From NCBI RefSeq assembly GCF_002865645.1, contig NW_020194615.1, positions 372,001 through 436,000 of the forward strand: a stretch of DNA of 64,000 nt, in the 5' to 3' direction. Below the pieces are notes generated by a model. The model ran no database searches, was not told where the DNA came from, and saw only the letters and a program-made list of their open reading frames with translations. The position numbers and the translations under genes were made by a program. Positions 16,356 to 58,679 of this stretch are shown piece by piece. The first letter of the stretch is position 1. Each line of letters opens with the position of its first letter. The stretch comes from Hyaloscypha bicolor E. Its lineage: Eukaryota > Ascomycota > Leotiomycetes > Helotiales > Hyaloscyphaceae.

Positions 16356-19300
16356 CTAGCCATGTTTTTTAGTCCATCCAAGGTCTGCCAGGGCGATTTT
16401 CCGCTGTTGTTGGGAACGCATAGTCTTCAGCATCAAATTAGCTAGGTGCTTTACTCGCAACGCAGGTGACTTGCCTGTTCTACAGTGCCTCGAACAATGT
16501 AGCGTATGATCGAGACTTTCTTCTTTTGGCCAAGCCTCACGACTCGGGCTACTGCTTGCGACTCTACCATAGGATTCCATTGAGGCTCAAAGATGTGAAC
16601 TGAGCTGGCCACCGCGAGATTGAGACTAACCGCTACACCTTTAGCAAGAACCTATTGTAATTGATTGTCGGGGATTTTAGAAGTTTTGGACAGAAGCATA
16701 CCCAACTGCACCAGTTCCGGTAGTCATTATCAATACCCGAATCTTGGAATCTTTTCGGAACTCTTCGAGTGTCTTGTTTCGCGCAGGGAGAGAGGACATT
16801 CCATCAATTCTTCTGAAATTAATGTTGCCTTTCTTAAGATGCTGCTCGATCAGGTCCAGGGTTCTTGTCCAACCAGAGAAAATGATGCTACACAGTGTTA
16901 GCCTATTTATCACTCCGTCGCTCCCTGCCCAAGAGCGACAAACCTCTTATCTTGAGCGCTGGTATTCTCGATATTTGTGAGCAGAGCCTTTATCTTGGAA
17001 GAAACCCCGTCTGGTCGGAAAGATAAAGGGCACTCCTGTAGCTGGCGTCCAATCTGGCCAAGCATCGCCTCAGCTCTACTTAGCACAAGATAATCCCCTG
17101 GCAACTCTTGTCCACAGAGTGGGCAGACTCTATCTTTGGCATCCTTGGCTGTGGCAAGAGCTTGTTCGAACTGTGGAAGACATTCAGAACAAATTAGATG
17201 ACCACATGTTGTATAATGCCCGTTGCATAAACTGTCCACCAGTATTTTATCTGACAAGTCCGTTTTGCAAGAATCACACATCGTCGAGCTTACTGCGTCA
17301 AAACTGTTGTAATTTTCCGATACTTTATCTTCCAGTCGTGATCTCTCAAAAGTGCCATGATTGCACATGCGACGGAGCCGCATTTCAAGCTCCAGGATTC
17401 CAAAGTAACCGCGCTTGGACTTCTCGAGGTTTACTTGTCTCTTGATCTCATTGGACATCTCCGTATGAGCGTTGTCGTACTGCAGTCTTTCTGCATCGGA
17501 CAAATCAATCTCCTCATAAATGTCATTGACATCAGGGAGATCGAGAAGTTTGTTAAGTCGACGGAGGCAAATAGAGTCTAATAGTACCCTGAGACTGGAT
17601 GCACCGCTTCCATGTTTCCTCACCAACGGATCTATAATATGCTGCTTGAACTCGAGTCGTGTATCAAGCATGGGCACTTGCAGAAATGCCACCAAAGAGC
17701 CAAGATCTTCTAGTCCGTTTTGTACCGGGGTACCTGTCACGCACCACCTGAGTTTGGCTTCGAGTCGTCTCACCGACTCAAAGAAGAGGGTCGAGGCTGT
17801 ACGAATGATATGTGCTGAATATGACAATTAGTTAAGCGAGTATCATAATTGCCCATACATGGTGTATACCTTCGTCTAGAACAATTCTGAACCAGTGGAT
17901 CCGAAACAGCGGACTAGTCGTCTTCGTGCTTTCACCAGCGACTGTGTGGTAGGTGCTCAGCACAACATCAGCGTTCGCGATCGCCTCCACCTTTGTCTCT
18001 CGGCCTCGGCCATGATATTCGCAGACTCTGAGACCACCATAAATATGCCTATGGAGAATGAGTACAAAATATAGGTAATATAAGATGACGAGGGGGACAG
18101 ACTTGTTTATTTCTTCATTCCAGGACTTGATGAGCACTAAGATAGCAGCGAGGGTCAATGAACCTCCTTGATTTTACGGTTGCTTCCAACATACTTTGAG
18201 AAGGAACGAGAACTAATGTTGCTCTTGATCGATGAAGTATCTCTTCGTCTGTCAAATGGGCCTCACTCGTCGAAGTTGACGAATCCTGAAAGGTTGCTGC
18301 ATCCTTCAAAGTCGCAACAATGTTGGCCAACATTGTGAGAGTCTTTCCTAAGCCCATGTCGTCTGCCAAAATGCCACCCCAAGTCTCAACAGGTTTGTCG
18401 TAAGTTTTAGTTTCTGAGATTACATGGGAATAACTGGATGTTCCTCAGCGACTGCATTGAATCATCGATACCAATCCCTACTCACCAAGTCTTCCCGTCA
18501 TACTCGCCAGGCATATCTTTCCAAAGTGAGAACCGTGGTTGTACAGGACCGAACTCTCGTTGAGAAATGAAATCCAGACCTCCTTTTTGGTACCTTTCTG
18601 ACCAGTCAGACGAGTAGCTGGCAACGGGTTACGGAGTGGGCAATGAACGTACGGCGTAAGACTGGTTCTGATCCTTCTGTCGGCTGCAAATTCACTTAAG
18701 CAATGTGATCTGATCAAGGAACCAAAAACAACTGCGAACTCATTCTTCAGGTCATCTTTGTCAATCTCTTTCTGCGCGTTTGTCTCCGCAATGCTATCAA
18801 TATCAGATCGAGCTTCGGCTTTGCGTTCCTCAAGTGTTCGCGGCTCTATCCCAGGGAATTTGACATAGTGAGGATTCTGGTATATTTGACCGGGAATTTG
18901 ACAAGCTGGACGTTGGAGGTACAATCTCTTGGCCGATAGTAGCCTGCCTACGTCTATCAGCGTGGACGCGTTTGCAGAAACATTAACCCCAGCATTCAAA
19001 ATGGGATTCTTTTCGGCAGTTGTCTGTGAACGAAACACCTTGGACCACGATTGGCGTGTGACATAGAAGTCAAAATCCACTGATGGAATCTCCAGTAAGA
19101 TTTGGTTGGTGGCCTGGCTGAAAGGAGTATTCAACGAAGCAACAAGGTTGCCTGGACTGCATGCGAGGTATCCAGCTCCATCCTCTCGCTGAAGAACAAA
19201 GTGATAATTTGAGTTATCAAAAGACCTCGTTGTTGCATGGGTGATTTCAGAAAGGGAGAGAGAGGTGGTGAGAAGCCTGATCTCAACGGCGGGTAGCTGT

Positions 19301-19551
19301 AAAATTGTGAGCTTGTCAAGAGGTACGGGAGAGCCTGGTAGCATATGATAAAGAGGAGATCTGGGGCTGCCAAGAGAACCAAGACGTTCACTGACCATGC
19401 CAAGGCATATTAAAGCCGAATCAGCAATCCTGTTGGGTGGAGTAAAACGCGCGCCTGACTCTCTATGGGTCAAGTTGGGTGCAACATTCGTGAAATTATC
19501 TCTCTCGCCAGTGGAGCTTATATCCACGAAACCTCTTTTCAGCGGAAGCAT
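16356..19551 (-). CDS. RAD5/HLTF-like SNF2 ATPase with C3HC4 RING (module 1)
   Basis: Nine-exon model on the minus strand: 19551-18653, 18593-18486, 18433-18195, 18136-18103, 18048-17870, 17814-16944, 16887-16702, 16625-16475, 16424-16356; 911 residues, frame closes exactly. SNF2 ATPase motifs: QREFGPVQPRFSLW before motif I, Walker A DDMGLGKT (about 360-367), DEAH rebuilt by splicing (about 485-488), WCVTGTPVQN, and the C-lobe SGWTRTLDL, TTGTGAVGLNL and QAVARVVRLGQ (about 862-872). A complete C3HC4 RING (C666, C669, C690, H692, C696, C699, C717, C720) interrupts the helicase lobes, the RAD5/RAD16/HLTF layout. Expected role: DNA-translocating chromatin or repair factor with ubiquitin-ligase potential, nuclear. 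The last intron uses a GC donor. A start further upstream (Met at 19740) is possible, but it would invade the shared promoter with the divergent NLR gene. Confidence 0.85.
16425..16474 (-). other. GC-AG intron in the SNF2 gene (module 1)
   Basis: The exon ends CAG and the intron begins GCAAGT, runs 50 bp through a TTGATGCTGA branch-like stretch and ends GAAG. Without removal the frame stops soon after the last helicase motif. With removal the C-terminus reads on as TMRSQQQRKIALADLGW, and the position and phase match the last helicase intron of the paralogue at 58429. Confidence 0.75.
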
Positions 19552-19894
19552 GATGGCAAGCAAAGTCGTTAGAAGGTACTCATGTTTATCGTATTTCTTG
19601 ACGGAAACTTGGACCGAGGCAGGAAATTTTTTGGGAGACATGAAAGCTGGGATAGCTGCCTTGGTGACAAGAGAGCTGAGCCTCCGCCATCGGGTGCTGT
19701 TGTGGAACCGCAGCAAGCCACGGCCCAAAAACGCAACCACTGCGCCACGTCAGCCCATGCCCGACTGCTGCAAGATAGTTCTCCGAACTTTTCAACATCA
19801 TTCCTCAAAACACATAGGGTTGCGACTTCTTGTTTCAAGCATATCGTTGCATGGCGAGAGACTAGGCAAAGCCGCTGAATATCCCTCTCCAACC
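19552..19894. promoter_or_regulatory. Shared divergent promoter of SNF2 and NLR genes (module 1)
   Basis: About 340 bp lie between the two ATGs pointing away from each other (19551 minus, 19895 plus). Both promoters must fit here, which would allow joint control. No specific binding site is assigned. Both strands happen to be open through part of it, so either gene could start further out. Confidence 0.5.
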
Positions 19895-22800
19895 ATGGCT
19901 ACTCCATCATCTATGGTCCCCACCTTTCAGACAGTCGTCTCCAATTTTAGATCGCGACTCTCCAAGGCTGAGCTAGACGATTTCAAATTCTGCTCATTGA
20001 AAGATGTGCAACAAGCAATCATAGATATACAAGCACAACAAGATAAGAGGAGAGAGATGAGGAATCTCTCGCGGATTCTCGGGTTCTTGGAAGCAATGAA
20101 TCAATTTGGCGCAGTTGTTGAGGTCTTCTTGAACACGTCTGAAATCCTCGCTTTCGTTTGGGGGCCTTTGAAATTCCTTCTTTTGGTACGAATTCTCTGT
20201 CTTACCTTATTCGTCGTCATATTTGGATAAAAACAATCTAACATTTCTTCTGTAAGGTTGCGAATAATTGGGCTGTGTCTTTCGATGCTCTCCTCGACGC
20301 TTATCAACAGATTGCGGAGCAGATCCCTCTCCTATTACAATACCAGAATGTGTTTACCGAGAGCTCAGACATGCGTGGAGTTCTGGGAATGATGTACAAA
20401 GATATTCTCGAATTCCATCAACAAGCTCTTCGTGTGTTTGGGAAACCAAGTGAGTAACCCCGGCAGACACTTAATCAATACACATTCTTATCAAGAACAG
20501 CATGGCAGCAGATATTTCGCGCTGTTTGGAAAGACTTTGATACGAGGTTCCAGCATCTACTGTTGAATTTGCAACGACACAAAACCCTGATCGAAAGCCA
20601 CGGAAACGTACTCCAGATCAAAGCCTCCCAAGTAGCCCGAGAACTGGCCGAGAAGGCCTTCAAAGAAGCTGATATAGCAAGGAAAGATAATCAGCGAATT
20701 GCAGTACGAACATGGTTATCAGCTAGGAATGTTCAACTAGATCATGAAGTGTATACTGGAGTGAGAAAATTATACCCAAGTACCGGACTTTGGGTGCTCC
20801 AAAAAACCGCTATTGTTGCGTGGCATGACAGCCAGCACACCTCAGGATCCCTTGTTTGGATTCACGGCATTCCAGGAGCAGGTAAAGCACGAACTTCAAC
20901 ATAATAGGACAGGACTAATCGTGGTTGTAGGCAAAACGGTACTAGCGTCTGTGATTGTTGAGAAATCGAAGTCACTATCATCCACTATCGTCGCTTATTT
21001 TTATTGCAAATATAAGGATCAAGAGCGAAACACTTTCGTTGCGGTCTTTCGAGCTATCATATCGCAATTGCTCGCACAGAGTAAAGACTCAGATCTCTTA
21101 CAGGCACTTTATGAAAGATCTGTGGAGAGCGGAGAGCGATACCTGGAGTCGCAATCATTGTGCACGGAGCTTCTAGCCATAGCGGTAGGAAGCATTCCAA
21201 CAAATGTTGGCATACATTTGATAATAGATGGGCTCGATGAGTGCGAGAATAAGGAACGAAAGGTAATCATTTCAGAAATTGCGAAAATCTTGAGGAAGGA
21301 TCCTCAGCCTGGTAGAATTCGGGCCATGTTCGTCAGTCAACCAGAACCCAGCATTCGCAGTTTACTTCGCACGGCCACGATAGTACGGCTGTCAGAAACG
21401 GACAATATGAGTGACATTGCCGAATATACAAGGCACTGTTGTTTGGAAATTCAAAGCAAGTTTGATCTCGCTGATGAGAAGCGCGACTTGATCCGAACAC
21501 TTGTATGTGGGAGTGCGGGAGGTGAGAATAGCTAATTAAGGCATATAAGATTTTAGCTGACATTATTAGGCATGTTTCTGTTTGCGAAATTGGTTCTTCA
21601 GAATCTCTACTCTCAGGTCTCGCGTGCACAACTCTATGAATCACTCCTGCCTCGACGGTTTCCTCTGGGACTGAACCAAGCGTCTGTTTAAACCTTTCAT
21701 TTCTTGTTAACTTGGCTTCCACTGGATTATACTGATTCAGATGTCCGTCTAGCTATGGAAGAATAGTGGAACGCATTGAACGAAATGAAAACGTCGCTGA
21801 GAGAGATCAAGCACTCACGTTGCTGGGCTGGGTGGTTACTGCCAAACGTCCCTTGACATGGCCGGAAATCCAGGGCGCCGTATCTATCGATATCGAAGAT
21901 CAGATTGTGGATTTCAAAGAACGATCGCTTGTCGTAGATATCGGAGCGCTTTGCGGATCGTTAGTCGAAAGACTCCCTGGCGATCGCATAGAGCTCGTCC
22001 ATACCTCAGCTAGAATGTGAGTTCAAATTTCCCAGCCACTTTGATTATTGAAACACTCTAATTCGATTCCCAGATATCTTATGCAAGATAATCATGTCAG
22101 AGTATCGCGGGCCGAAGGGCAGCTTGCATCTTTATGTTTACATTATCTCATGTTTCCTGGTTTCATGGCAGATGACGAGGAAATTTGCCAACTTCTCAAG
22201 ACTGGATTCTACGTCTTTCAAAACTATGCAATGTTACACTGGGTCGACCACTTGCAGTCCTACTTGGAGCATCTTCAAACTGACGATCTGGATGATCTTG
22301 ATAAGCTGGCGCCAATTTGCGAAGAGTTCTCATCGGAATACGGCCCATCAGATGCTGACACGTCCGTTGGGGTATCCCTCCAAAGTTTGCGCGAACGCTG
22401 CAAAAAAGCTGGCCACCAAGCAAGCTTCGAGACGTTTGTAGCGCTCATTGCTTATGCACGAGACTTAAGAGGGAAAAAGAATTCTTTAGACGGATTGGGA
22501 AATCTGGGAAGCATTCTGACCTCTGTCAGAGAGAACCAAGAACGACTAATCAAAACCGAGGATTCGGCTTCCATACTGGCACTCTCAAAATTTTACGGCG
22601 ATCTGCTGTTCAAATGCCCACGACATATGTGTTACTACTTTCACGAAGGTTTTGCGGACTCAAGGTTAAGACATCAACATATCCAACTTCACAACCGAGC
22701 CTTTTGCTGCAAAATAGACGGTTGCAGCAGAATTCAGACCGGTTTCTCCTCAGATGCAGATCTGCAAAGACATATAAAAAAGAATCACTTCTTGCCAGAA

Positions 22801-23184
22801 GCTTCTGCAAAGTTATTTCCAGAGCCAATGACTCAAGCCAAGGTTAAACCTCCGAAGGGAGTGCATAAGTGTGAAGAATGCTCCAAGAAATTCACCAGAG
22901 GGAGTACCCTCAAGGAACACACCAGGAGGGTCCACACAGGAGAGCGGCCGCACTCTTGCGGGAAATGCAGTCAAGCATTCGCAAGTGAAAAGGACTGTCG
23001 AAGACACGAAGATTCGCACTACGAAGGAAATTTTGTTTGCAGTGGAGAATTGGCCCCTGGGGTCAGATGGGGATGTGGGCGGGTATTCACTCGAGCTGAT
23101 GCCCTGACACGTCACTTCAGCTCAGCATTGGGTCACAAATGTCGTCAGTCGGACCCACGAGCAACTGAGCACGTTCATCAGTGA
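19895..23184 (+). CDS. NLR-type STAND protein: DUF7708-like, NACHT, C2H2 fingers (module 1)
   Basis: Seven-exon model: 19895-20185, 20257-20449, 20501-20881, 20931-21521, 21570-21681, 21753-22016, 22074-23184; 980 residues, frame exact. The N-terminal part (about 50-190) carries the conserved helical block with FVWGPLKFLLL and LLDAYQQIAEQIP, matching the DUF7708 domain found in front of fungal NACHT proteins. Walker A GIPGAGKT is at 284-291 and Walker B LIIDGLDE at 385-392, followed by the GMFLFAKLVL block and a winged-helix-like stretch (LTLLGWVVTAKRPLTW). The C-terminus (about 820-970) has several C2H2 zinc fingers, one with the classical linker HTGERP. There are no WD40, ankyrin or TPR repeats, so the fingers take the place of the usual sensor domain. 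Predicted role: signal-transducing NTPase in non-self recognition or cell-death control. It is divergent to the SNF2 gene. Confidence 0.85.
20882..20930 (+). other. Intron inside the Walker A codons of NLR 1
   Basis: Phase-1 intron (49 bp) splitting the second Gly of GIPGAGKT as G|GC. The second NLR has an intron at the same codon and phase (51228-51283, G|GA). Confidence 0.8.
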
Positions 23185-23840
23185 CATTTCTGGGTATTTG
23201 GATATTTGATTGTGTCAATTTTGCCAAGGATCACTAATAACTAGGCTTTGCCAAATTGGTTTCTTCATTAACGCTGGATAATTGAATGGACTTCATTGGC
23301 GATGAGAGCTAGCTAAAAGTCTTCCCTCAACTGCTGCATGGATTTATGAGGCCGGCACAAGAAGCGGGTTGGACAAGATGCTTGGGAGTTTATGCCCCAA
23401 ACAGTTACCACCATGATGACATCCAAAGCCTCCCGTTTATTCCCTTGAAGTTCCAACTCTCATATCGAGTTTTGGCTCCTCGGTTGACCTCTGTGTCCCT
23501 CATACCTCCAGGCTAAAAAGCGCTCCCGCCCCAACCTAGCAACCACATGCCTACTTACCCCATATCAGATCCAGAATACTCACTCGAGTCTCTCATTATC
23601 CAGCCTTCATCATCCAGTTTCCCTTACAAATAGTCACACAGTGACGCAGCCAATCAACCCCTGCGGTGGCTCAGGGAGCAAGATGAATCTGCAAAACTGA
23701 GGGGAGGTGATGTGCCGTTTCAGGGCCACACACGCCCTATTGGTTGCGCGACCCTCCCCTCCTACACTGTTCACCGCTTCTCCTTCGGATCTATCCATTC
23801 CCTACATCTCCAAATCCACTACAATCACCGTAGTGCCACT

Positions 23841-23876
23841 TCCTCCTCCTCCTCCTCCTCCTCCTCCTCCTCCTCC
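23841..23876. repeat. Microsatellite (TCC)12
   Basis: Uninterrupted TCC triplets, inside the repeat-rich intergenic region. Confidence 0.95.
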
Positions 23877-24504
23877 ACAGGTGTAGTTAGGCCAATGAGC
23901 CCCTCTAACGAGGTTTGAGAGTCTGGCAGCCAATCAACTTCTTCTCCGATTGAGCTGCGAGGGAAACATTGCTGAAAGCCTCCTAGATGCACGTCCACAA
24001 TGAGACTGAACGCATCTCCTCCTCACTGCTCACAACCAAGCTTTCCCTCTTTTCCATCTTTCCACAACATCTCCAAATGTGCCATGATCACTCTTTTACC
24101 ACATCCCCCTTCCCCCCACGCATAGGGTTGGCTGGTGTAGGCTCCGAATGAGGATTGACTGCCACGCACCAATCAAATGCTTCCGCGGTTGAACTTCCAC
24201 AGGAAACCACGAAATTCACGTATCTGAACAGGGCCACCGCCACTGACTCACTGAGCCCCCTCACCACTCACAATCAAGTGTTCGTCCTTCCGCCCCACGT
24301 CCCCGCGCCACCATCGTGCTCTACTTTCTCGTAGAAACAAAGGTTAATCTGATTTTGGCAGGTTCTGCGCTAGAAGGGATAATCAACCAATTGTTCTTTC
24401 AGATTCGGTGACATATTACCTGATTTAGTTTGGTCCAGCCGTGGAGACTTAACCTTTGAGGTCAGGGTACGAAGTACCACGCGAGGACGCCCTCTATCCA
24501 TCCT

Positions 24505-24540
24505 TTCCCTACCCTTCCCTACCCTTCCCTACCCTTCCCA
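24505..24540. repeat. Tandem repeat, 10-bp unit CCCTACCCTT-like, about 3.5 copies
   Basis: Head-to-tail copies of a pyrimidine-rich decamer between two CCAAT/CAGGGCCACA units. Confidence 0.85.
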
Positions 24541-35933: not shown

Positions 35934-35934
<1 letters not shown>

Positions 35935-35968: not shown

Positions 35969-35971
<3 letters not shown>

Positions 35972-45411: not shown

Positions 45412-48168
45412 ATGTGCTTCCTCATCGTGGAAAGATACAGCGTCTGCAGGTGTTTGTACTACAAACACTCTGTAGACATGTGCGAAAAGTACGGGAAACG
45501 AGGCCACACTGTTCAGGAACGGACAGTCCTTGTCGGATACGCGTGCGGAAAGCACAGCCAAAACGTCGACGGACGCGCGCCTCCACCAGCAGATGAGAGA
45601 TACTCCGACAGTAAAGCACTTTCCTCGACTAAAGGCTCTCAACTTGGCGAATTCCGCGCAAGCAAGCGGACGAATTCGCCACCGGAAACTGTTGAGACAG
45701 CGGTAGAGAATGTCGCGGACGATGTGATGGAAAATTTGAACAGTCTGCTGGGTGATCAGCTCGACGAAGTTATTCTACCTCCTCCATTAGTTGAAGACCC
45801 TCGGGCAGCTGATCGTTTGACCTATCTGGAACCACTGCGAGCTCGGCTACTTGATTCCGAAGCGTACTTCACCTCCTTGTCGGAGCTCGAACAGAACATA
45901 TGGTTGAACTCGTCACTCTGTGCAGCCAATTCTCGGATACGCCATGACTTGGAAACGTCAATACAATTGGGATCGCCAATTCAATTGGGGTATGGTAGGT
46001 TTGCAACGTGTGTGACCTACCCCGAGATTTCTCCCCACCTCCTTGAGAAATCAATGAACTTTCTAAAACCGCTACTTGATGATGATCTCACTTCTCTGCG
46101 AGAGGGTAGCCGGTGTCCCAAAGTTCTCTGCCGACACGCCGAATGTCGAAATATCATCACGAGGACGTATCTCAACCTACGGCGGTTACAACTTGCTGGT
46201 TTTTGCGGTCCCCATTTCAGCATAATCATTGCAGACGAAAATCGGCAGAATGTCGTAAGGCTTCTGACAGTTGAAGTTTCTGAAATTGTTGAAATTCTAA
46301 AAGCTCTTGAGACATGGCTGCAGGACATAGTGCTGAAATATCGCAACGGGAACTTCGGTAAGGAAGACTATAACATAAAGACGAACTCTAATTTCGAGCA
46401 TGCGCTCTCAAAGTCTCCATCTTTCACATGGATTTCTGCAGCACAGCCCGGATCCGATCAACTACGACTAGAGCTGGTCTGGCGGTATGTTTGCATGTTA
46501 GATGTTGGGGTAGTGATCTACGCCGGCGCTCATTTGAACGACATCCGTTCTGAAAAGTATCGCTGGGAGAGCCGGGGCATCCTTATCGAATCTCCCCCAT
46601 TTCCATTTTTGGAAAACGAACCTCCCGTGTCTATCACAACCGTCAGTCGTTTCTTTCTACGATGTTTGAACAGATTCCACGATGGCAAACCTGTATTGGT
46701 CTTTCATCATGACCGATTTGTGAATAAAGGGCTCTATCTGTCTACTACTATGACTGCGTTTGCGGACATTTGGGGACCGTTATGGAAGGGTGTAGACCAG
46801 AAAGATCCAAGCAAACACGCTGCTTATATTGTCGGCAACGGATCCATTCATCCTTGGAAGCACGATCCAAAAAGAGATCCTCCCTTAGAAAAGGAAGTTC
46901 TGTGCCACTGGGTTTCTGATGATGTGTGGGATGAAGGTTTCGGTCTTGATTTGTCTTCAAACATAGACCAAAGATCCTTCGACGGTTCAGAACAACTCCT
47001 CATCGGAGCGCCCACGCTAGCGGAGTTAGAAATCAACAGCAAATGCCGACTTTCTATCAGCCAAGCAAGGCAAAATTTGAGAGATATGGGACGGCTTTGT
47101 ATTCTTGGTGCTGCAAGACCGTATCTCTACAGTGACGGAAGCCAATATCAACTTCAGGTTGGGTATAGCGGGGTTAACGCATCTGCAACGAAGCAGTACA
47201 AACGAAATTCTGGACAAACACTCAAGAAAGTTCTAGTAGAGCTTTGGTCAATGGAGCCTGACCTCCGAGACCCAAAAATGTTATCAGACCTACACGGAGT
47301 TGAGGTATCTCCGTGTACTCATAACACCCAGCGAGTTTCCTTAGCATACCTCCTTGGTTTGGATTGTATGGCCTCGTTGTTGTCCGGCTTCAGTTGGAAA
47401 TCCGAACAGTACAAGAACGAACATTTTGAAACACTCAAAGATCATTCTCGAGAACTGCGGCAATTAAATTCCGAATTCCGTGAACAGTTCGAGCAAGCAG
47501 TTATGCTTTGCCTCAAAATGTTAAGCAAGACCGGGGTAGACCGGAAAGACAACAATGCTTTCACGGTTTTCCTATCGTCGGCATGTACACCGAAGCCAGA
47601 GCTCGCCACTCTGGTAGCGACCGAGCACAACTGGATTGGACTTTTGAAAGACACCGCTACCGATTGTGCTATGGCGGCTTTCGGAGACCAGTGCTTGGAG
47701 TTCAAGCACAATGGCGGAGCTACGTGTGGTGGGGTTGGCAAGTCAGCTTTTCTGACGGCTCTTGTACCCAACGGACTTTCAGAATCCCCTCTCAAGGCAA
47801 AAATCGGGTCAACAGACGCCCCGGATTCCGCCACGTGGGCTTGGAGCTGGGATCTGGAGAAGTTGCAGGTCGGAGAGGGCTTTTGGCTTGGTGAGCGGGG
47901 AACATTGCGAGTGAAGGGTCGATTGGCGAGTGGTGTTCTGGTCACGGAATGGCAGCCTTCACGGCTGAAAAGCGCTGTGAAGTTGTTTGTCGGGAAGGAG
48001 TATCCACATCGAGAATATGCTGAAATTGATCAGAGTGGAGAGGGAGGTGTAAAGCCCATTCCTGTGGTTGTTATTTCGGACCGCGCGAGGGTAGGGAGGA
48101 AAGGTGGGTCGGCTTTTATTCGTGTGGTAGGGTGGGGAAAGGGGGTCGCGAAGGAGGAAGAGAAGTGA
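45412..48168 (+). CDS. Uncharacterised 918-residue protein with Cys/His-rich N-terminus
   Basis: Single uninterrupted frame of 918 codons from an ATG, unlike the intron-rich NLR and SNF2 genes around it. The first 48 residues hold a regular metal-ligand-like set: C12-x-C14, H19, C24, H32, C45-x2-H48. A small zinc-binding module is plausible. The acidic linker (about 95-125) is followed by a long mixed alpha/beta region without a motif I recognise (for example YIVGNGSIHPW near residue 470). The C-terminus is basic. No signal peptide or membrane helix is evident. The N-terminus resembles hypothetical proteins I associate with Pezizomycotina, but I cannot assign a function. It is the last gene before the MITE nest and the second NLR gene. 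Confidence 0.8.
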   Translation: MCFLIVERYSVCRCLYYKHSVDMCEKYGKRGHTVQERTVLVGYACGKHSQNVDGRAPPPADERYSDSKALSSTKGSQLGEFRASKRTNSPPETVETAVENVADDVMENLNSLLGDQLDEVILPPPLVEDPRAADRLTYLEPLRARLLDSEAYFTSLSELEQNIWLNSSLCAANSRIRHDLETSIQLGSPIQLGYGRFATCVTYPEISPHLLEKSMNFLKPLLDDDLTSLREGSRCPKVLCRHAECRNIITRTYLNLRRLQLAGFCGPHFSIIIADENRQNVVRLLTVEVSEIVEILKALETWLQDIVLKYRNGNFGKEDYNIKTNSNFEHALSKSPSFTWISAAQPGSDQLRLELVWRYVCMLDVGVVIYAGAHLNDIRSEKYRWESRGILIESPPFPFLENEPPVSITTVSRFFLRCLNRFHDGKPVLVFHHDRFVNKGLYLSTTMTAFADIWGPLWKGVDQKDPSKHAAYIVGNGSIHPWKHDPKRDPPLEKEVLCHWVSDDVWDEGFGLDLSSNIDQRSFDGSEQLLIGAPTLAELEINSKCRLSISQARQNLRDMGRLCILGAARPYLYSDGSQYQLQVGYSGVNASATKQYKRNSGQTLKKVLVELWSMEPDLRDPKMLSDLHGVEVSPCTHNTQRVSLAYLLGLDCMASLLSGFSWKSEQYKNEHFETLKDHSRELRQLNSEFREQFEQAVMLCLKMLSKTGVDRKDNNAFTVFLSSACTPKPELATLVATEHNWIGLLKDTATDCAMAAFGDQCLEFKHNGGATCGGVGKSAFLTALVPNGLSESPLKAKIGSTDAPDSATWAWSWDLEKLQVGEGFWLGERGTLRVKGRLASGVLVTEWQPSRLKSAVKLFVGKEYPHREYAEIDQSGEGGVKPIPVVVISDRARVGRKGGSAFIRVVGWGKGVAKEEEK

Positions 48169-48707: not shown

Positions 48708-49155
48708 CCAGGCTCGGCAGTGGTACCTAATTCCGGGTATTGATCCGTATTAATACCAGAATTGTAAGGTACCAATCCTATCGATTCCAAGCGAGAATCG
48801 CGGACCCCCCTATCTAACCCCTTTAACTATAATTCTTATTATACTTATTACCTTTAATTAAAAAAGTAAGTATAACGTTATAATTAGGAACATCGCTTTA
48901 ATAGTTTTAGATATTTTTATATTAAGGACTTTAAAAAAGTCCACTTTTTTGATGTTCCTTACCCCTCATTAGCTATCTGACCCCTCTCGCAAAGGAAAGT
49001 ACAGTACCTCTATATATAAATTTACTGTTTAAGGTACTTAGCAAATTTCTCGCTTAGAATCAATCCTGGATTAATACGGATCGATCCTACCAATACTAAG
49101 TACCAGGGGGTATTGATACCGGTATTGATACCTCAGGTATTATTGCCGAGCCTGG
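48708..49155. mobile_element. Putative MITE with CCAGGCTCGGCA terminal inverted repeats
   Basis: The left end reads CCAGGCTCGGCAGTGGTACCT. The right end is the inverse, reading as CCAGGCTCGGCAATAATACCT on the other strand. Further inverted similarity (TATTGATCCGTATTAAT against ATTAATACGGATCGAT) lies inside. The interior is AT-rich and non-coding. Length is 448 bp. I cannot identify a clear target-site duplication. Confidence 0.65.
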
Positions 49156-49213
49156 GCTGGGGCTGTGTTGCGTGCAGCACCCTCGAGTCTAGCAGCCGAG
49201 GGACAGGGGGCCA

Positions 49214-49490
49214 TACGAAGGCGCACAGTTTTGAAGATTGTCCATTTTTAGCGGGGTGAGGAATACCAAATCTCACACTTTTAAAAATTGCGCATCGCAA
49301 TGCTACTCCGTCCAAACACTTTAAACTAAGCTCTAGGCAAAAGAGAAGAATCTCAAGTATCTTTCCTTTGTGTTTCAGTGATTCTAAAACTCTAGGGAGT
49401 TTTATTGCGACTTTCAAAGAAGTGGGGGAGATTTTTGAGGATCTCGCTTAGCGAAATGGACGATTTTCAAAACTGTGCGCCTTCTTCGTA
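49214..49490. mobile_element. TA-flanked MITE, family A, copy 1
   Basis: Long imperfect terminal inverted repeats of about 35 bp: left CGAAGGCGCACAGTTTTGAA, right (reverse complement) CGAAGAAGGCGCACAGTTTT with a 3-bp insertion. A TA dinucleotide flanks both ends (49214-49215 and 49489-49490), as expected for Tc1/mariner-type insertion. There is no transposase; the open frame inside is incidental. It shares terminal and subterminal sequence with 60935-61206. Confidence 0.8.
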
Positions 49491-49499
49491 CAGTCACGA

Positions 49500-50195: not shown

Positions 50196-53100
50196 ATGGC
50201 TTGCGAAGCAGCGAGTCCTTCGGATCTGATTCTCGACCGGAATGCTCGAGTGTTTCAGATAGCCATCGAGAAACTTAAGCAGACAATAAGTTCCCCGGAT
50301 GCGGCAGCTTTTCAATCAACACTTATCGAAGATGTCTGGGTGGCCGTGGAGGAGATACAAGAGTCCCAAAGAAAGCGAAAATCTCTCCGGAACATGCGAC
50401 GTGTCGAACCGTTTTTAAGGACCCTTGAACAGTACTCAAAAGTTATCGAAGTCGCTTGCAATGGGACTTCCTATCTACCTTGGGTTTGGGTAAGTGATCT
50501 TTGACACACTAAAACGCAGTTGGCTAATGTCATTGAGGCTCCGATCAAGATGATGCTCCAGGTAAGTCTACTGGCGTGGTATTATTATTACCACTGTTAA
50601 TTATTAGCTCGCCGACGAATACACCAATGTCTTTGATAAGCTAGTTGATGCGTATGGTCAAATTGCAGAAGCGATGCCTCAATTTGAGAGGTTGCAACGC
50701 GGATTTGGTGACCAAACCAATTTCCAAGCCATCCTGGCGATGGTATATGAGGATATCCTAGAATTTCATCGTCGTGCCTATAAGTTCTTCCGGAGAAGAG
50801 GTTAGTAATCTGTTACGCTAAGTCTCTGCATTGTTTGATTTTGTGACAGCATGGCATTTGTTCTTCGACTCTCTCTGGAAGTCATTTGAGTTTCGATTTA
50901 ATGGCATTCTCAAGCGACTTTCCCATCACAAGGAACTTCTGATTAAAGAAGCCGTTACAATCGATATTATAGCAGCACGACAATGGAGGATTGAGGCTAA
51001 AGAGCTGATCGTACAACAAGAAAAGAGGATTCATGATTACTACCTTCAGGACTGTATTTCATGGTTCAAAGTGGCGGATGAGCAACAAGATGACGAACTG
51101 GAGAGGTTAGCGGACAAACGGCAAGAAGGTACATGCGAGTGGGTGTTTAAAAACAATCGATTCCAAAGCTGGAAAGATGATGTACATGGCGAGCCAATTC
51201 TCTGGGTCAAAGGAATTCCAGGAGCAGGTTAGTCGACATTTCATTAATGGAACCCTGTGCATGGCGCTCGCTCATCTTGACAGGAAAAACGATATTAAGT
51301 ACCTATATAATCAAGCGCATACAAGAGGAGGAGGCTTTCACGACTGCTTATCACATATGCCACAGCTATACAGCAGGCAAAAACCTCGTTGGAGAAATCC
51401 TGAGAAGTATCACTGTCCAGTTCTTGCGCTCCAATCTTGAGCTTGCCCCATTTATTTTTGAGAACTACGCGAACAAAGGTTTAGCTCCATCCATCGTTCG
51501 AATGCGAAAGTTATTACCGGAGCTCATTGCCACGCTACCCTCAACCCGCATAATTGTCGATGGTTTGGATGAATATCCCGAGACTGACCAAAGAATAATC
51601 TTGACCGATCTGCTTGCACTTTCGAAGCTACCTGGGAGTCAATGCAAGATACTCTTTAGCAACAGAGAAGGGAAACAATTCAATAAGAGCTTGAGTAGCA
51701 AGCCTACAATATCTCTTCGAGACCAGAATGCTCTCAATAAGGATATTGAAACCTATGTTCATGCTAATCTAGAACTTCTGCGTGAAGGGCCGTTAGACAA
51801 CGCATATCTGATTGATTGGATCGAACGTGCTATCGTTCAGAGGGCAAATGGGAAGTACCCAGACAATCATTTTCTCAATTCTGCTAACTCTGTGTCAGGC
51901 ATGTTTTTATGGGTGCGTCTAGTTCTGCGGGGTCTGGATGATTGTGGTAGTGAACAGGACTTGATAAACACAGTCAACAATTTGCCCGATGGGCTCGAGC
52001 AAGCGTGGGTCTATCTGAGCACTATTTTAGTACCTGTCTGAACTCAACTCAGGTACGGCCGAATCCTTGAGCGCGTGGTGGAAGGTGTTACAGAGCAAAG
52101 CAGAGACAAAGCCCTTAGAATACTGGGATGGATCGCTTGCTCATTCCGGATTATGAAGACACACGAGATTCGAGACGGCATACAATTCCATACTAAGGGC
52201 ATGGAACTAAACGATACGACAAAAGTCAAACTAATTGACGGATTCTTTGACTTATGTAAACCGCTTATCGAGGAAGGGCCACAGAATACGATTCAATTCG
52301 TACATTATTCTGCAAAGCAGTGAGTCCCATGCATTTCCCCCACGCTCAATGCGTCTAACAGACGATTCTCCAAGATATATTCTCGATCAGAAAAGCGGGC
52401 CGTTCCTACAATACTACCAATGTCACTACGATCTGTCCTTTGCCTGTATAAATTACATGAACACGAGTCATTGCCTCATCGATCCTGGATATACCGAGAG
52501 CGCCCTGCGGGTTAGAGTCGTCAAAGGCTTTCATAACCTGCATCATTACGCAAATGAGTTCTGGTTCCAACATCTTTTACAGTATGCCAAAAGTGGCATT
52601 GTAGTTGAAGACGAAGACCTCGATGACCCTCTGGAAGAACTTCGGGAGTTCTGGAAAGACGAACCAGGCAAGGGCGCGAAGACCCTAAAGCTGGACGATA
52701 CGACGTCTGCAGAAAGCATCATATCTCAGTTGGAGGCATTGAAATCGATAGAGCGGGCTCAGAAAATGGGGATCGATATCTTAACGTTCCACAAATTCTT
52801 ATCGCAAGAAAATAACAGCCATCAAGATATTAAAGGTAAGTTGGGAAACTTCGTGCTTTGAGACATTGTCCTGATTGCATGCTTGTATCCTAGATCTAAA
52901 GAGCGATGAAATCAAACGCGACCCAACTCACTTCAGCGCAATCAGTCAGCGTTACCAAGACATAGTCCAGTTGCTCACGGAATACATTGCTAAGGACCTG
53001 CCGGAGGGCATCGGGGCCGAGGAACTCGAGAAATTCAAGGAAATTTACCTCGACTCCGCCTTCATTTGCCGCTACCGCGAATGTTACCGCTACTCTAGAG

Positions 53101-53785
53101 GCTTTAAGTCGTCAATAGAGCGCGACTACCACGAGAAACTCCACAACAAACCCCTCCGCTGTGCCGATCCATCATGCGATTTCTTCGCCAGAGGTTTCAC
53201 AAGTAAGAGCGGATTGAATAAGCATAACCGCAAATACCATCCCACACTAGAGGAGAAAGAACTTCCTGTTTTCGAACCTGAGAAGGAGCCAGAACCAGAG
53301 GACACCGCGCCTTCGGCGCCGCAGGCACCACCGCCGCCACTCCAACCTCGACTTGATCCAAGTCCACTCTTGCAGTTTTCCACTCCGGAACCGCAGAAAC
53401 CTATGAGGCAGACCCCGAAGCCGAGAGAGGAGAGAATGAGCAAGGCCAAAAAAGGGTTGCCAGTTCATCATTGTGATCTTTGTCCGAAGGTATTCCTCTC
53501 CTTGCAACATAACCGATATCAGGCTAACGCAAGCAGGTCTTCACACGCAATGAAGGCCTCGAGTATGTCTTCTGTGCCTCCACAATCGAACAGCGCTGAC
53601 AAAAGCAGACGACACAAGCTCAGCCATCAACCCCCAAAGTTCTGGTGCTCATGGCCCGGCTGTAGTCGAGCATTCTATCGTTCTGATTTGCTTGCGCGAC
53701 ACAATATTCAGCAGTGGGCTGCCCTTCTTTTAATTTGATCTACTGTGCTGACTATTGCAGCAAAAATATAATGGATGAATCTTAG
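50196..53785 (+). CDS. NLR-type STAND protein: DUF7708-like, NACHT, C2H2 fingers (module 2)
   Basis: Eleven-exon model: 50196-50489, 50538-50561 (24-nt microexon), 50608-50800, 50850-51227, 51284-52004, 52053-52319, 52375-52835, 52894-53489, 53537-53562, 53609-53713, 53761-53785; 1029 residues, frame exact (an upstream ATG at 50160 adds 12). Same plan as the NLR at 19895: N-terminal block with WVW plus APIKMMLQ and LVDAYGQIAEAMP, Walker A GIPGAGKT (292-299), Walker B IIVDGLDE (386-393), GMFLWVRLVL, then a Pro-rich linker (about 900-950) and C2H2 fingers. The last two introns rebuild two canonical fingers (CDLCPKVFTRNEGLERHKLSH, and one ending HNIQH), which supports these splices. One ancestral intron (51851-51898) appears to be read through. 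The SNF2 gene follows on the same strand 1.4 kb downstream. Confidence 0.83.
50538..50561 (+). other. 24-nt microexon of NLR 2
   Basis: Codes for APIKMMLQ between two introns (50490-50537 and 50562-50607). The paralogue carries the equivalent GPLKFLLL without a break in its first exon, which confirms that these eight residues belong in the protein. Confidence 0.75.
51851..51898 (+). other. In-frame retained intron (48 nt) in NLR 2
   Basis: The segment ends in a typical CTAAC branch and TGTCAG acceptor, and begins GGAAGT where a GTAAGT-like donor is expected. It is exactly 48 nt, the length of the functional intron at the same position and phase in NLR 1 (21522-21569). With the donor lost it is open and adds 16 residues (about 486-501) before GMFLWV. 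Confidence 0.75.
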
Positions 53786-55200
53786 CTTTCGAATACTTAA
53801 AGTTCTGGCAATGAGAGCGGGATATCCGTCTGTCCTGAACCTGCTTTGGCGGGTGGTTCGTACCAACAAGATCCTTCAATGCCAGCAGTTTCGGAGGGGA
53901 CCCTATTCATTGAACCTCCCTTGATATAATTTTCAGACGATCTCCGCAATGACCAACCCTTATCAAAGCATAGTTTGAGGGTGATGTCACTTGAAAAGTG
54001 ATTGATCTATACTCCGTCTTCGCACTTCTCATCTTTTTGAAACAAAGGTGTTGAGGGGGTCTCCCGCCGGAGAAGCATTGATCCTTTGACCTTTACACGA
54101 AGACTGATCCAACATCCCTACTATATCTACGCCTTTTAGCCCTGAATGTGACTTGCTACGTACTTGGGCGACGAGGTGTAACTTGGAAGTTGGAGTGCAT
54201 ACTTCTTCGGATGAGCCTTCCGGATATGGAAAAGTTCAGAAAAATGGTGTTCATGCGCCATTGAGAACGGTGTTGAGGCCTGGCAGAAGAGCCCCCATGA
54301 TTAATCCTTATATTAACCCCTATGTACTTTAGAGCCTCGAAATAGTGTGGAATTATCTGTTGGAGTTAACAGGACATAAATTTTATTGCGAAGGCCAGTA
54401 TCGTCGCTGAGAACACAGCCCATAAGAAGATCTCGTGGCGGAGGCAACGTGATAAGACATAGTGGCGGAGCTATGGAGGGCAAGAATTCAAGTAGTTGCG
54501 CACGAATGCATGAGAACTGCAACAGATCTGTGAATTTTCACTAGATTTTCTGCTTTGGTCTACCGTGAAAGAATGCTGTCGACAGCTTATTGCCGGGAAG
54601 GGACTGAGAGTCGAAGGCCCGGGGGCTGGCGGGCCGGCTTTGGAAACGACCAAGGAATGCCAATACCCTGCCTGGCCCATGGCCTCCTTCTTGCGCGACA
54701 AGTACATGGGCATAGGGTTACAGTACAGTATTCAGTGGGGCTGACGCCGTCCAGCCACGAAGCACAGGTACCGCAACTTTCAAGCGCATGTGAACCGAAA
54801 GGCTTTCGGAATGTTTCACTAACACCGCAGCCATGCTGCTACGAGATAAACGAGCGGTGTCGAAATTTCCCCGGGAAAGTACAGGGCCTTGTTTCGGTTA
54901 CGGATTTGGTGTCTCTTCCATAGCAGGCAGTTGGGGCCGTGGCGGAGCTTGCCGACAGCTTGCAAACGTGGCGAGGGGCCGCCCAGTTGTTGGCTGCTCC
55001 TGGCCTTTTCACATCTCCGCAAAGCCTCCTCAAGACGCAAACGGCGATGGATCACCTCCAAACTCCTTTCGTCTACCGGGTAGGCGTCAATGTTTTCGGG
55101 TGTCTGTGAATCTCTGCGATCTCTAGAACGTCTTGGCATTGCTCGTGATTAGTGCTCCTGTCTGATCGAAGTGGAGGCACCTCGCCGCTGCAGTTCAGCC
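53786..55200. other. Intergenic region between NLR 2 and SNF2 2
   Basis: About 1.4 kb without a supported gene. It holds the NLR terminator and the promoter of the downstream SNF2 gene; short frames near 54555-55139 occur on both strands and look like chance. Confidence 0.5.
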
Positions 55201-58200
55201 ATGGACATTCAAGCTGCGGCTCCCTACGGGAGTCGTAACTTCCAAGAGCCGACTCAAAAACGACGACGACTAGATCACCATTCATTCCCTTCAGCGGGTT
55301 TAAGATTTCAAGCGTCGGCCATCGCACGGCTAGATTCGAAGGATCAGGCTTTCAAGGAGAGAGAGCAGCTTTTATCGGAGAGAGTATGGGATCCCGGACC
55401 CCACAATTCACAGAAAGAGCCTGCGACATGGTCAAGTCCAACCTCGGAAACTACATCTTACTCGAAGGGACATAGTGACTTAACAGGACCATTGTACCAT
55501 CCTTCGGATCTACCAAGGGAAAAGAACCCCCTATTGAGCGGAACTCGGCAAACTTGCCATTCTCTTGTCGTAGAGGGAAATCCTGGCGTGCACATTGCGG
55601 AAGGAAGCGCCTGTCTGTCAGTCACAAGGGACAAAAGCTTGCTCTGCTTTGGCATGGTGAACCTTCAATGGATTTCTTTTCCAAATAAAACATACTAATC
55701 CTCTCAGATATCCGATGTGCCCTTGACAACAACACATTCAAGTATTTTAACCACCGACACTTCAAATATTGCACTATTGTTTGTGGAACCCAACCTTCTT
55801 GTTCAACCCGGCCAGCCTGGCCACTTCGGAAAATTGGATGACCGAATGTCCAAGATTCTAGTTAATCTCGGTTCCGGAGAAGAAATCAAGTTCCAAATTT
55901 ATTGTCGAAATATCAAGTGCCGAGCTGCCCAAAGCAAGAAAGTGGCGCGTAAAGTTGGAGCTAATGAGTTGCAATACTTGTTGAATGCGATTATATATGG
56001 TCCTCAACAACTCTGTGACGCAGTAGGGTTATATTTGACGAAATGCGGCGTCTATCTTCAGGATCCATTGCATTGTGATGGGGACTACAAGTATTCGAAT
56101 CCTCACATCATATCACGGTCAGAAGGGACAGCTATGACTTCTTCTCTCATGAATCTCAAAGCAAAATCAGATGTAGAGGTGATACGGACTAAAGATCTTT
56201 TCGCGGAGCTAAGTGAGGACGACCATCTCCTCTTGACTGAAGCACCTGATGCCATCAATACACCTCTCTATATGTAAGTCTTAACCAGAGTAGCCAGACT
56301 CTCGACTATCTAACGACCTTATATAGTCATCAGAAGAGAGCACTTACTTTCATGACAAGGAGGGAAGAAGGGTGGCAATACAATGACTCAATGGAAGATT
56401 TTTGGGTTAAAGAAGTCGATGAGACCGGCCAGATGACGTGAGTTTGGTCCGAGATGTTTTATCGTTGTCTCTAACCTTAGCAGATACACGAACATGATCA
56501 CAGAGATCTCTCAGAATGCTCCTCCCCCAGCCTGCCCAGGTGGTCTGCTCGCTGATCAGATGGGGTTGGGAAAGTCTTTAACTGTGATTTCCCTCATTGC
56601 TTCGAACACTTGCAAAACGCGGGAACCAATTACTTTTACATCAGAAGGCTATCTCAAACGCTTAAAGTCAACAATGGTGGTGGTGCCATATTCTCGTGAG
56701 CGGAAAGGCTACATCAATTTACTAGCATTGGCTAATGAAATTTAGTTCTTGAAGTTTGGAATACGCAGTTGAAAAGGTACAGCACCATTTCTGGTCGTAA
56801 AAGAATTGAACTGATCGTTCAGACATCTTAAACCTAACACGTTGACTTGGATGAAGTTCCATGGCAATACAAAAAAGAGAACCCTTGACCTGGCCAGACA
56901 CGATATAGTGATCACCACTTTCGAGACTCTTGTTAGTGAGCAGAGCAGGCATCTCAATCCTGAGTACCAAAACGATACACTTTTCTCGTTTTCGTGGCAT
57001 AGGATTGTATTAGATGAGGGTAAGCCTACTCAACAGCTTCCACGAGAACCCTCTGCTAATTGTTAACGCAGCTCACATAATCCGGAATCGAACAACATCG
57101 ATGGCCAGAGCCGCATGCGCAATTCATGCCACAAACCGCTGGGCAATCACTGGCACACCTATACAAAATTGCGTGACTGATTTTGCCAGTCTGCTTCAGT
57201 TCCTCCAGCTATATCCTTTTTCCATCCCCAGAGTTTTCGATGAGCATATTGCTAGGCCATGGCTTAAGTCTGGTGGTGATCGAGATATCTCTTCGATGAA
57301 GAAATTAGTAAACTGCATCTCTTTGAGTCGAACGAAATCGATAATTGATCTTCCTAAACGAGAAGATTTAATTCATCATCTTGACTTCAGCGCAGAAGAA
57401 CACGAGTTTTATAACACGGTGAAAGAAGGGGTTTTGAGGAAGCTCAACGAAGCTGTGGGATCAACTCCAGTACGGCCAGGCCAATACCTGAATGCTTTGC
57501 AATGGCTTAACGAATTGCGACTCCTCTGCAACCACGGCCTCGCACACGCGAAGATAAATGTCAACAAGCCTCTTAGTATCACCCCCCAAGATATTCAGAA
57601 TTGGAACAAATCTACGGCCAATAGAGCCTTCGAGACCATTGTCTGTCACGATGAGGCCATCTGCTCGATGTGTGGAAATTCAATTACAGATGGGGGCGGA
57701 GGAGGGTCCTCTTCCGAGTTTCCCAAACCGATCCTCTCCAAGTGCCTTATATTGACTTGTGGATCGTGTGTCAAGCATTCTATCGGTGGTGAGCTTGCAC
57801 ACAGATGCCCACACGACTCCTTTTGTAAAAGTATCGAGGTTTCATGGGCGTCAGAAAATGAAGGGCAAGCTCGGATAGAAAGGGTCCTTCCTTCGATACA
57901 GCCAGAACGGGTCTCTACGAAACTCAAAACCCTTCTGAAGAGCCTACAAACTTGCTATCTAGGAGAGAAGAGGTATGACTGTATTTCTTTTGAAATTACG
58001 AATACTAATGTGCTGCTCAGTGTTGTGTTCTCCTATTGGACAACTACTCTTGACATTATCGAGTCGTTGCTCCGACAATCCGATATATCTTACACACGTA
58101 TAGACGGCAAACACTCAGGTGAGAGACGAGAGGAAGCGATTGAAAAGTTTCAGACCGATGAAAAAGTTCAAGTCATACTTGTCTCTATCACTTGTGGAGG

Positions 58201-58679
58201 CGCTGGGTAGGTCACCGTCCTCTTCGCATCCGGTCTTTTCACCTTCCTTCCAGAAGATTTGCTGAAACTTGACCAAGACTTGATCTCACCGCGGCTTCTG
58301 TCGCCTATCTTTTAGAGCCACAGTGGAATCCTATGTTGGAAGAACAAGCACTGTGCCGGATCCACCGACTGGGCCAAGCGAAAGAAGTCAAAACAATCCG
58401 ATATCGAATCAGAGGGTCTTTCGAAGAAGTATGAATTGAACCACTAAGAGATGTTTTCCCGTGGATTTTGATGAGAGCCATGCTGACGGTTCCGCCAGAA
58501 AGTGGCAGCAATTCAAGATCTCAAGAGGCAAATTGCTGCGGATGCATTCTCGATTGATGGGCGCAAAAGTCCGCTGGACAGTACAAATCATCTAGAAGTA
58601 GGTCTCCACTCAATCGTGATTTTCTATATTGAACCAGCATTAACCTGTATCACAGCAATTGAGGGCACAGTTGATCTGA
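55201..58679 (+). CDS. RAD5/HLTF-like SNF2 ATPase with degenerate RING (module 2)
   Basis: Eleven exons: 55201-55656, 55708-56273, 56327-56437, 56484-56695, 56746-56776, 56823-57019, 57072-57972, 58021-58206, 58278-58428, 58499-58597, 58656-58679; 977 residues, frame exact. Motifs: KRRRLD nuclear-localisation-like stretch near the N-terminus, Walker A DQMGLGKS (about 401-408), LLEVWNTQLKR, DEAH rebuilt by splicing (about 523-526), WAITGTPIQN, a RING-like insertion (C722, C725, C749, C754, C757, C770), SVVFSYWTTTLDI, GLDLTAASVAYLLEPQWNP and QALCRIHRLGQ. Six intron positions and phases match the SNF2 gene at 16356-19551, and exons of 186 and 151 nt have the same length there. The RING lacks the central His (Ile instead) and the final Cys spacing, so ubiquitin-ligase activity is doubtful. 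Expected nuclear DNA translocase. Confidence 0.85.

What the first reader, a model, noticed from the sequence alone, without database searches (positions are those of the whole stretch)
16356..58679. Two copies of an NLR + RAD5-like SNF2 gene module
A DUF7708-NACHT-C2H2 NLR lies next to a RAD5/HLTF-like SNF2 ATPase at 16356-23184 (divergent, 340 bp apart) and again at 50196-58679 (tandem, 1.4 kb apart). Both partners are paralogous between the sites. I know of no described functional pair of a fungal NLR with a SNF2-RING translocase. The zinc fingers on the NLR and the DNA translocase suggest a nuclear or DNA-sensing branch of fungal non-self recognition, perhaps with the SNF2 protein as partner, guardee or executor. 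Paralogy and proximity are seen; joint function is inferred.
Basis: partly seen in the sequence, partly recalled or inferred. Interest (0 to 1): 0.88.

Follow-up and report, generated by a model that had tools for sequence, protein, structure and literature searches.

The report
Fungal NLR and DNA-motor gene pair
In this fungus, and in at least six other mould species, a gene for an NLR-type (immune-receptor-like) protein sits next to a gene for a Rad5-like DNA-motor protein, and the two have been copied and inherited together, so they likely work as one unit, which is predicted to act in the nucleus.

Summary
Both window sites carry a DUF7708-NACHT-zinc-finger NLR beside a Rad5-type SNF2 ATPase; the two copies are ancient paralogues (25% and 28% identity). 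In the same 82 Mb genome (inferred: Hyaloscypha bicolor E) I assigned 16 SNF2 loci to this subfamily; 14 have an NLR nearby (13 within 6 kb), 13 of these 14 divergently transcribed. Trees of 11 paralogous pairs agree (Mantel r 0.98, P=1e-4). Elsewhere 18 of 120 listed NLR relatives share a contig length with a listed SNF2 relative, and the 7 pairs with two readable locus tags are neighbours by tag number. No third gene recurs in the flanks fetched. Behind a conserved core the NLR C-terminus is swapped between CrzA-like DNA-binding fingers, Tup1-like WD40, ankyrin and a weak UBA/CUE match; the SNF2 ATPase motifs are kept. Best reading: a two-gene NLR system whose likely executor is a nuclear DNA translocase. 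Joint function is inferred from co-evolution; nothing biochemical was tested. My paper searches listed no report of this pair.

The parts
16356..19641 (-). SNF1: Rad5-like SNF2 ATPase with RING (7 exons, about 972 aa; start codon uncertain, last intron of GC-AG type)
   Evidence: Pfam SNF2-rel_dom 4.6e-52, Helicase_C 3.5e-17, weak zf-RING_5; Walker A, DEAH, motif VI and C3HC4 pattern present
19642..19894 (.). Intergenic stretch between the divergent SNF1 and NLR1 coding sequences (candidate shared promoter; inferred)
   Evidence: divergent order in 13 of 14 linked pairs of the genome
19895..23184 (+). NLR1: DUF7708 - NACHT/NPHP3_N - winged helix - helical middle - core C2H2 pair - CrzA-like C2H2 triplet (7 exons, 985 aa)
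20084..20610 (+). DUF7708 part of NLR1 (residues 64-201, introns included)
   Evidence: 1.7e-13
20782..21337 (+). Nucleotide-binding domain of NLR1 (NPHP3_N/NACHT, residues 259-427, introns included)
   Evidence: Walker A GIPGAGKT and Walker B present
22615..22788 (+). Core tandem C2H2 pair of NLR1 (residues 797-854), found by a strict pattern in 9 of 11 paired NLRs of this genome
22870..23142 (+). CrzA-like zinc-finger DNA-binding domain of NLR1 (residues 882-972)
   Evidence: 53% identity over 93 aa to a stand-alone zinc-finger protein of the same genome (L051)
50196..53738 (+). NLR2: DUF7708 - NACHT - core C2H2 pair - further C2H2 (9 exons, about 1021 aa)
   Evidence: one intron falls at about the same place as in NLR1
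55201..58747 (+). SNF2: Rad5-like SNF2 ATPase, RING degenerate (about 1035 aa; 3' end uncertain, 58.6-58.75 kb)

Best explanation
It is a two-gene cassette, an NLR gene and a Rad5-like SNF2 gene that have been duplicated and inherited together, and it likely works as a nuclear sensor-executor pair. Shown: conserved adjacency, mostly head to head; congruent trees; ATPase motifs conserved in the SNF2 partner; an NLR core (DUF7708, NACHT, winged helix, tandem C2H2 pair) followed by a C-terminal module that is swapped between CrzA-like DNA-binding fingers, Tup1-like WD40, ankyrin repeats and a weak UBA/CUE match. Inferred: the swapped C-terminal modules serve as baits or docking surfaces for nuclear events (an invader's factor, foreign DNA, or disturbance of calcineurin-CrzA or Tup1 control); when triggered, the NLR would exchange nucleotide and oligomerise through NACHT; it would then recruit or switch on its partner, whose ATP-driven translocation on DNA (plus ubiquitin ligase activity where the RING is intact) would carry out the response, such as silencing or blocking foreign DNA or starting cell death. 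Divergent transcription from a short shared region would keep the two proteins in balance.
Against: No expression, localisation, interaction or phenotype data. DUF7708 alone does not predict pairing: 23 of 28 DUF7708 loci have no SNF2 hit within 6 kb. S12 and S14 have no detected NLR, and the NLR2 query that would test them did not complete. S4 and its NLR are about 14 kb apart. The trees differ in places: S8 is basal in the NLR tree but groups with S5, S11 and Tricladium in the SNF2 tree; the nearest external relative agrees for only 5 of 11 pairs, the external set holding no clade-2 pair. The RING pattern is absent from all four clade-2 models, so ubiquitin ligase activity cannot be the common output. 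A CDRE-like motif (GNGGCGNNG) is not enriched between the genes (3 found, 1.8 expected, 8 of 10 divergent intergenic stretches examined). 102 of 120 listed NLR relatives have no listed same-contig SNF2 (lists cut at 120 of 284 and 120 of 1628), so some may be unpaired. Tup1 ranks fifth for the S10 tail, below regular WD40 proteins. Ankyrin and WD40 C-termini are common in ordinary fungal NLRs (established knowledge). Divergent neighbours may share only a promoter.
Confidence: 0.5

Rival explanations
1. Guard model: the SNF2 protein is the guarded factor. It works in repair or in silencing mobile DNA, and the NLR watches it and kills the cell through its DUF7708 domain when it is attacked.
For: The SNF2 partner keeps its Rad5-like catalytic motifs, so it probably has a job of its own; DUF7708 overlaps weakly with the Goodbye domain of fungal NLRs (8 of 46 chosen homologues at E up to 0.1); plant NLRs guard host proteins (established knowledge).
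Against: A guarded housekeeping protein would not be expected to duplicate in step with each of 11 NLRs; the part that is swapped is the NLR C-terminus.
Confidence: 0.2
2. Restraint model: the SNF2 protein remodels chromatin at the shared promoter and keeps the dangerous NLR silent until needed (antidote-like).
For: Short divergent intergenic stretches (about 250-310 bp in S1, S7, S9, S15) and 13 of 14 divergent pairs.
Against: S2 is tandem with 1.46 kb between the genes, and S3, S6 and S4 have about 4.6, 5.8 and 14 kb, yet remain linked; a promoter-bound role does not need co-divergence of the proteins.
Confidence: 0.12
3. Transcriptional regulator model without immunity: the NLR is a ligand-switched transcription factor (CrzA-like fingers, Tup1-like WD40) and the SNF2 protein its chromatin remodeller, serving development or stress responses.
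For: C-terminal modules resemble those of transcription regulators; DNA-contact residues of one finger are conserved in the chosen homologues.
Against: Many divergent copies with a swapped C-terminus in one genome, the two-gene format and the NACHT-type switch are usual marks of fungal non-self recognition genes (established knowledge; PMC10197012 passages); S5 carries ankyrin repeats instead.
Confidence: 0.1
4. Linkage without joint function: the genes are merely neighbours that duplicate together as a segment.
For: Segmental duplication would also give congruent trees.
Against: No flanking gene recurs between the fetched loci, apart from the NLRs' own WD40 tails and one repeat shared by S2 and S9, and the linkage is seen in Leotiomycetes, Dothideomycetes, Eurotiomycetes and Xylariales (class names from established taxonomy), longer than neutral linkage should last; orientation is biased (13 of 14).
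Confidence: 0.08

Closest known systems
Fungal two-gene NLR-executor units (nwd2/het-S, PNT1/HELLP, gasdermin with protease/NLR genes)
   Same: An NLR gene beside a dedicated partner gene, found in various genomes and treated as one functional unit (PMC10197012, PMC12881547, PMC9815663: passages).
   Different: The partner here is a SNF2 DNA translocase, not a membrane-acting protein; the NLR has a long helical DUF7708 N-terminus instead of a short amyloid motif; a nuclear site of action is predicted.
Plant head-to-head NLR pairs with integrated domains (RRS1/RPS4 type; names recalled)
   Same: Divergent gene pair; the C-terminus of one partner carries a domain like that of a nuclear regulator (RRS1: WRKY, recalled; here CrzA-like fingers or Tup1-like WD40).
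   Different: The second partner is no NLR. Head-to-head NLR-NLR pairs are rare in Sordariales (13 of 225 two-NLR clusters; PMC12258605 passages).
Rad5/HLTF (fork-remodelling SNF2-RING translocases)
   Same: Best solved match by sequence and fold is K. lactis Rad5; RING inserted in the helicase in clade 1.
   Different: 22-26% identity in those alignments; no HIRAN among the Pfam matches shown; RING degenerate in clade 2; found as a multi-copy family beside NLRs.
CrzA/Crz1 calcineurin-responsive transcription factor
   Same: The C-terminal zinc fingers of NLR1 and several homologues are homologous to a stand-alone zinc-finger protein of this genome that I take for CrzA by recall; a source names an NLR homologue crzA (P0008).
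   Different: Fused to an NLR; no calcineurin docking part was looked for.
Prokaryotic defence systems with SNF2 proteins (Zorya ZorD and the like)
   Different: No sign of descent was sought; genes, hosts and partner proteins differ.

Membership tests
NLR / STAND receptors | Tripartite order: N-terminal effector/signalling domain, NACHT or NB-ARC switch, C-terminal sensor region | tested here: met
   DUF7708, NPHP3_N and winged helix matched in 46 of the 46 homologues that I chose, NACHT in 45, zinc fingers in 44
NLR / STAND receptors | Intact Walker A and B | tested here: met
   window NLR1 and NLR2 have both; over 30 pairs Walker A in 25, Walker B in 29 by strict pattern, some gene models being imperfect
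Fungal two-gene NLR-executor units | Conserved adjacency of NLR and partner | tested here: met
Fungal two-gene NLR-executor units | Partner is a known cell-death executor (HeLo, HeLo-like, gasdermin, lipase) | tested here: not met
   partner is a SNF2 ATPase
Fungal two-gene NLR-executor units | Shared amyloid signalling motif | not tested
   no motif search was made
Rad5/HLTF family | SNF2 ATPase core with motifs I, II and VI | tested here: met
Rad5/HLTF family | C3HC4 RING inserted between the helicase lobes | tested here: inconclusive
   met in SNF1, 19 of 19 external partners and 5 of 7 clade-1 models; not met in SNF2 and the other three clade-2 models
Rad5/HLTF family | N-terminal HIRAN domain | tested here: inconclusive
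   not among the Pfam matches of the window proteins nor among the 25 of 34 families shown for 34 homologues; a folded alpha/beta domain (residues about 97-245) is covered by the structural alignment to Rad5, which starts at chain residue 174
Plant-type NLR pair with integrated decoy | Divergent pair with an integrated domain like that of a host factor | tested here: met
   that the domain acts as a decoy was not tested
Plant-type NLR pair with integrated decoy | Both members are NLRs | tested here: not met

The most novel reading that the evidence does not exclude
Pezizomycotina possess a nuclear, DNA-directed branch of immunity: NLRs that carry decoys of the cell's own transcription regulators (CrzA DNA-binding domain, Tup1 propeller) each command a private Rad5-like DNA translocase that seizes or silences foreign or misbehaving DNA, a sensor-executor logic that ends on chromatin instead of at the membrane.
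Probability: 0.25. Interest if true: 0.95.

Novelty: new variant of a known kind. Interest (0 to 1): 0.85.

Why it matters
The fungal NLR partners named in the passages I saw (HET-S, HELLP, gasdermins) act on membranes. A partner that is a DNA translocase, kept beside its NLR through many duplications and across classes of fungi, would open the question of what NLRs do in the nucleus. It also offers a set of matched pairs in one genome for testing, and integrated nuclear-type domains (CrzA-like, Tup1-like) that hint at what is being watched.

Tried and rejected
Recent local duplication of the module: rejected, 25-28% identity and deep split of the two clades. Promoter autoregulation by the CrzA-like fingers: a guessed motif (GNGGCGNNG, from the recalled zinc-finger code; the published CDRE GNGGC(G/T)CA was seen in a passage of PMC2873923 afterwards) is not enriched between the genes. 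Hypervariable finger contacts, as in PRDM9-type arrays: not seen in one finger, which keeps R/D/R in nearly all chosen homologues; the finger before it varies at positions 3 and 6. A third member gene: the 922-codon ORF at 45400-48165 occurs at none of the other fetched loci, and the only flanking ORF shared between loci is the WD40 tail of two NLRs; flanks reach up to about 9 kb a side, with little or none for S3, S6, S11 and S15. TGEKP-type linkers as a mark of DNA binding: 26 of 89 strict C2H2 homologues, not decisive. An acidic FDLDTFL-like motif as a general activation domain: 2 of 120 homologues against 0.2-0.4 expected, so not general. My regular expression for CrzA-like fingers was faulty and its near-zero counts are disregarded; the strict core-finger expression hit 68 of 120 homologues and 13 of 19 paired external NLRs. 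DUF7708's own fold was not searched alone, so nothing is claimed of it.

Literature: searches, of which I saw titles and starts of abstracts. Word look-ups in PMC12258605, PMC4986451, PMC10197012, PMC9815663 and PMC12881547 found 'SNF2' and 'helicase' nowhere in their main texts; PMC8195603, the one paper holding all four terms, uses SNF2 for animal FAM124.

Rows dropped or weak: S9's NLR model failed, so its tree row is a string of aligned segments; S6's NLR is cut by the end of the fetched stretch; the SNF2 models of S8 and S11 are short. Contig identity was judged by equal length.
Full report
What is in the window. Two NLR genes each stand beside a SNF2 ATPase gene. I built spliced models by splice-site scoring. 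Site 1: SNF1 (16356-19641, minus) and NLR1 (19895-23184, plus), divergent, about 253 bp between coding sequences. Site 2: NLR2 (50196-53738) and SNF2 (55201-58747), both plus, 1462 bp apart. Pfam gives DUF7708, NPHP3_N/NACHT, a winged helix and C2H2 fingers in the NLRs, and SNF2-rel_dom with Helicase_C in the partners. A RING pattern is seen in SNF1 only. NLR1 and NLR2 are 25% identical, SNF1 and SNF2 28%, with one intron at about the same place in the NLRs, so they are old paralogues.

The organism. The window lies in an 82.04 Mb, 76-contig genome. A listed SNF2 relative, K444DRAFT_644904 of Hyaloscypha bicolor E, lies on a contig of 2,794,813 bases, the exact length of contig C45 here, and K444DRAFT_592612 of the same strain is 92% identical to my SNF1 model. 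I infer that the genome is this Leotiomycete (lineage; that it forms mycorrhiza is recalled).

The pairing is genome-wide. Domain searches with NACHT, SNF2-rel_dom and DUF7708 placed 7 of the 16 family SNF2 loci, and none of 30 other SNF2-domain loci, within 6 kb of a DUF7708 or NACHT hit. The 16 were assigned by me from hit patterns; four further loci match SNF1 comparably and have no NLR in reach, so a wider border would give 14 of 20 in what follows. The NLR1 query finds 11 loci whose match reaches the part before residue 170 (a cut chosen after seeing the list), and all 11 lie by one of these SNF2 genes, ten within 6 kb and S4 at about 14 kb. With S2, S9 and S15, 14 of 16 SNF2 loci have an NLR, 13 within 6 kb; S12 and S14 have none detected, but the NLR2 query that would test them did not complete. 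In 13 of 14 cases the genes diverge; S2 in the window is the tandem exception. S4, S13 and S16 are judged from coordinates alone. Intergenic lengths are about 250-310 bp in S1, S7, S9 and S15 and up to 5.8 kb in S6. On the other side, 23 of 28 DUF7708 loci are not near a SNF2 hit, so the rule holds for this NLR clade and not for DUF7708 as a whole.

The two genes evolve together. Maximum-likelihood trees of 30 pairs (11 here, 19 external) have the same main groups: a clade of S2, S9, S10 and S15, and a clade with the rest; S1 with Mollisiaceae and Venustampulla, S3 and S7 with Xylogone, S5 and S11 with Tricladium in both; S8 sits differently in the two trees. Path-length matrices correlate at r=0.984 for the 11 pairs of this genome (P=1e-4), 0.981 for all, 0.956 within clade 1. 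Raw distances give 0.896, the eight complete models 0.934 (P=6e-4), clade 1 0.900 (P=0.0013); the nearest external pair is the same for both partners in 5 of 11 cases, all in clade 1. Species history cannot make paralogues of one genome congruent; joint duplication can. In the flanks fetched no third gene recurs; one repeat is shared by S2 and S9.

The receptor. The NLR model (Coleophoma homologue, pLDDT 81) has a helical N-terminus, a STAND-type switch and zinc fingers. DUF7708 is matched in all 46 homologues that I chose for the alignment and overlaps weakly with the Goodbye domain in 8. After a tandem C2H2 pair found by strict pattern in 9 of 11 NLRs here, the C-terminus changes. In NLR1, S11 and several homologues there follow three fingers homologous to a stand-alone zinc-finger protein of this genome (L051): 78% over 112 residues in Coleophoma, 69% in Xylogone, 53% in NLR1. 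I call it CrzA-like from recall of the family and because a source names a homologue crzA (P0008). In one finger the contact residues R, D and R are kept in 43, 42 and 43 of 44 chosen homologues. In S10 and S8 the open frame runs from the core fingers into WD40 repeats. The S10 piece matches Tup1 (1erj) in one stretch over residues 2-273 (fifth by score, below very regular WD40 proteins and a chain labelled dynein tail) and over its pre-propeller segment; S8 matches Tup1 over 9-238. S5 continues into ankyrin repeats and S15 into a weak UBA/CUE match.

How it may work. A conserved enzyme and a receptor with a changing tail, kept as a private pair, suggests that the receptor senses and the enzyme acts. 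Some tails resemble nuclear regulators, so the pair is predicted to work in the nucleus: a disturbed bait or bound foreign DNA would switch the NLR, which would recruit or activate the translocase. Guarding of the SNF2 protein, restraint of the NLR by it, and a purely transcriptional role are rivals.

Novelty. Searches of a library of 5.39 million open papers listed no title or abstract start that reports this pair. In the main texts of PMC12258605, PMC4986451, PMC10197012, PMC9815663 and PMC12881547 the words SNF2 and helicase do not occur (word look-ups and passages only). C2H2 NLRs as such are known (34 in Sordariales). Two-gene NLR units are a known kind; this partner is, as far as these searches go, new to it.

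Noticed in passing
window 6110-8246 (-): Exons of a probable HET-domain gene (weak Pfam HET match, 0.0076, below the cut-off; TLSHCWG-type motif, recalled), so the window may hold another gene of the non-self-recognition type.
   Followed up: partly
window 45400-48165 (+): A 922-codon open frame without a clear family, upstream of NLR2 and absent from the other fetched module loci.
   Followed up: partly
G000:C3 about 1547-1576 kb (L041-L042, L047-L048): A clade-1 module (S7) and a clade-2 module (S10) lie roughly 13-15 kb apart, as clade-1 and clade-2 modules lie 27 kb apart in the window; whether two such meetings exceed chance was not tested.
   Followed up: no
P0052/P0166 and P0078/P0142: The pairs of Cladophialophora immunda and Nemania abortiva, fungi of different classes (recalled), are sisters with full support in both trees: horizontal transfer of the whole pair or an old paralogue.
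   Followed up: no
L037 about 3030-3240 (-), L045 near 5400, C-termini of P0001 and P0059: Acidic-hydrophobic motifs such as FDLDTFLQQDANLDAN downstream of or within NLR C-termini; possible activation or signalling motif.
   Followed up: partly
window about 48780-49340: Repeat fragments 86% identical to sequence beside locus S9, probably a mobile-element remnant.
   Followed up: no
window 8965-10944, 11527-13985, 42010-43819 (-): Phospholipase D-like, BNR/sortilin-repeat and MFS-type open frames beside and between the modules, i.e. ordinary genes also lie here.
   Followed up: no
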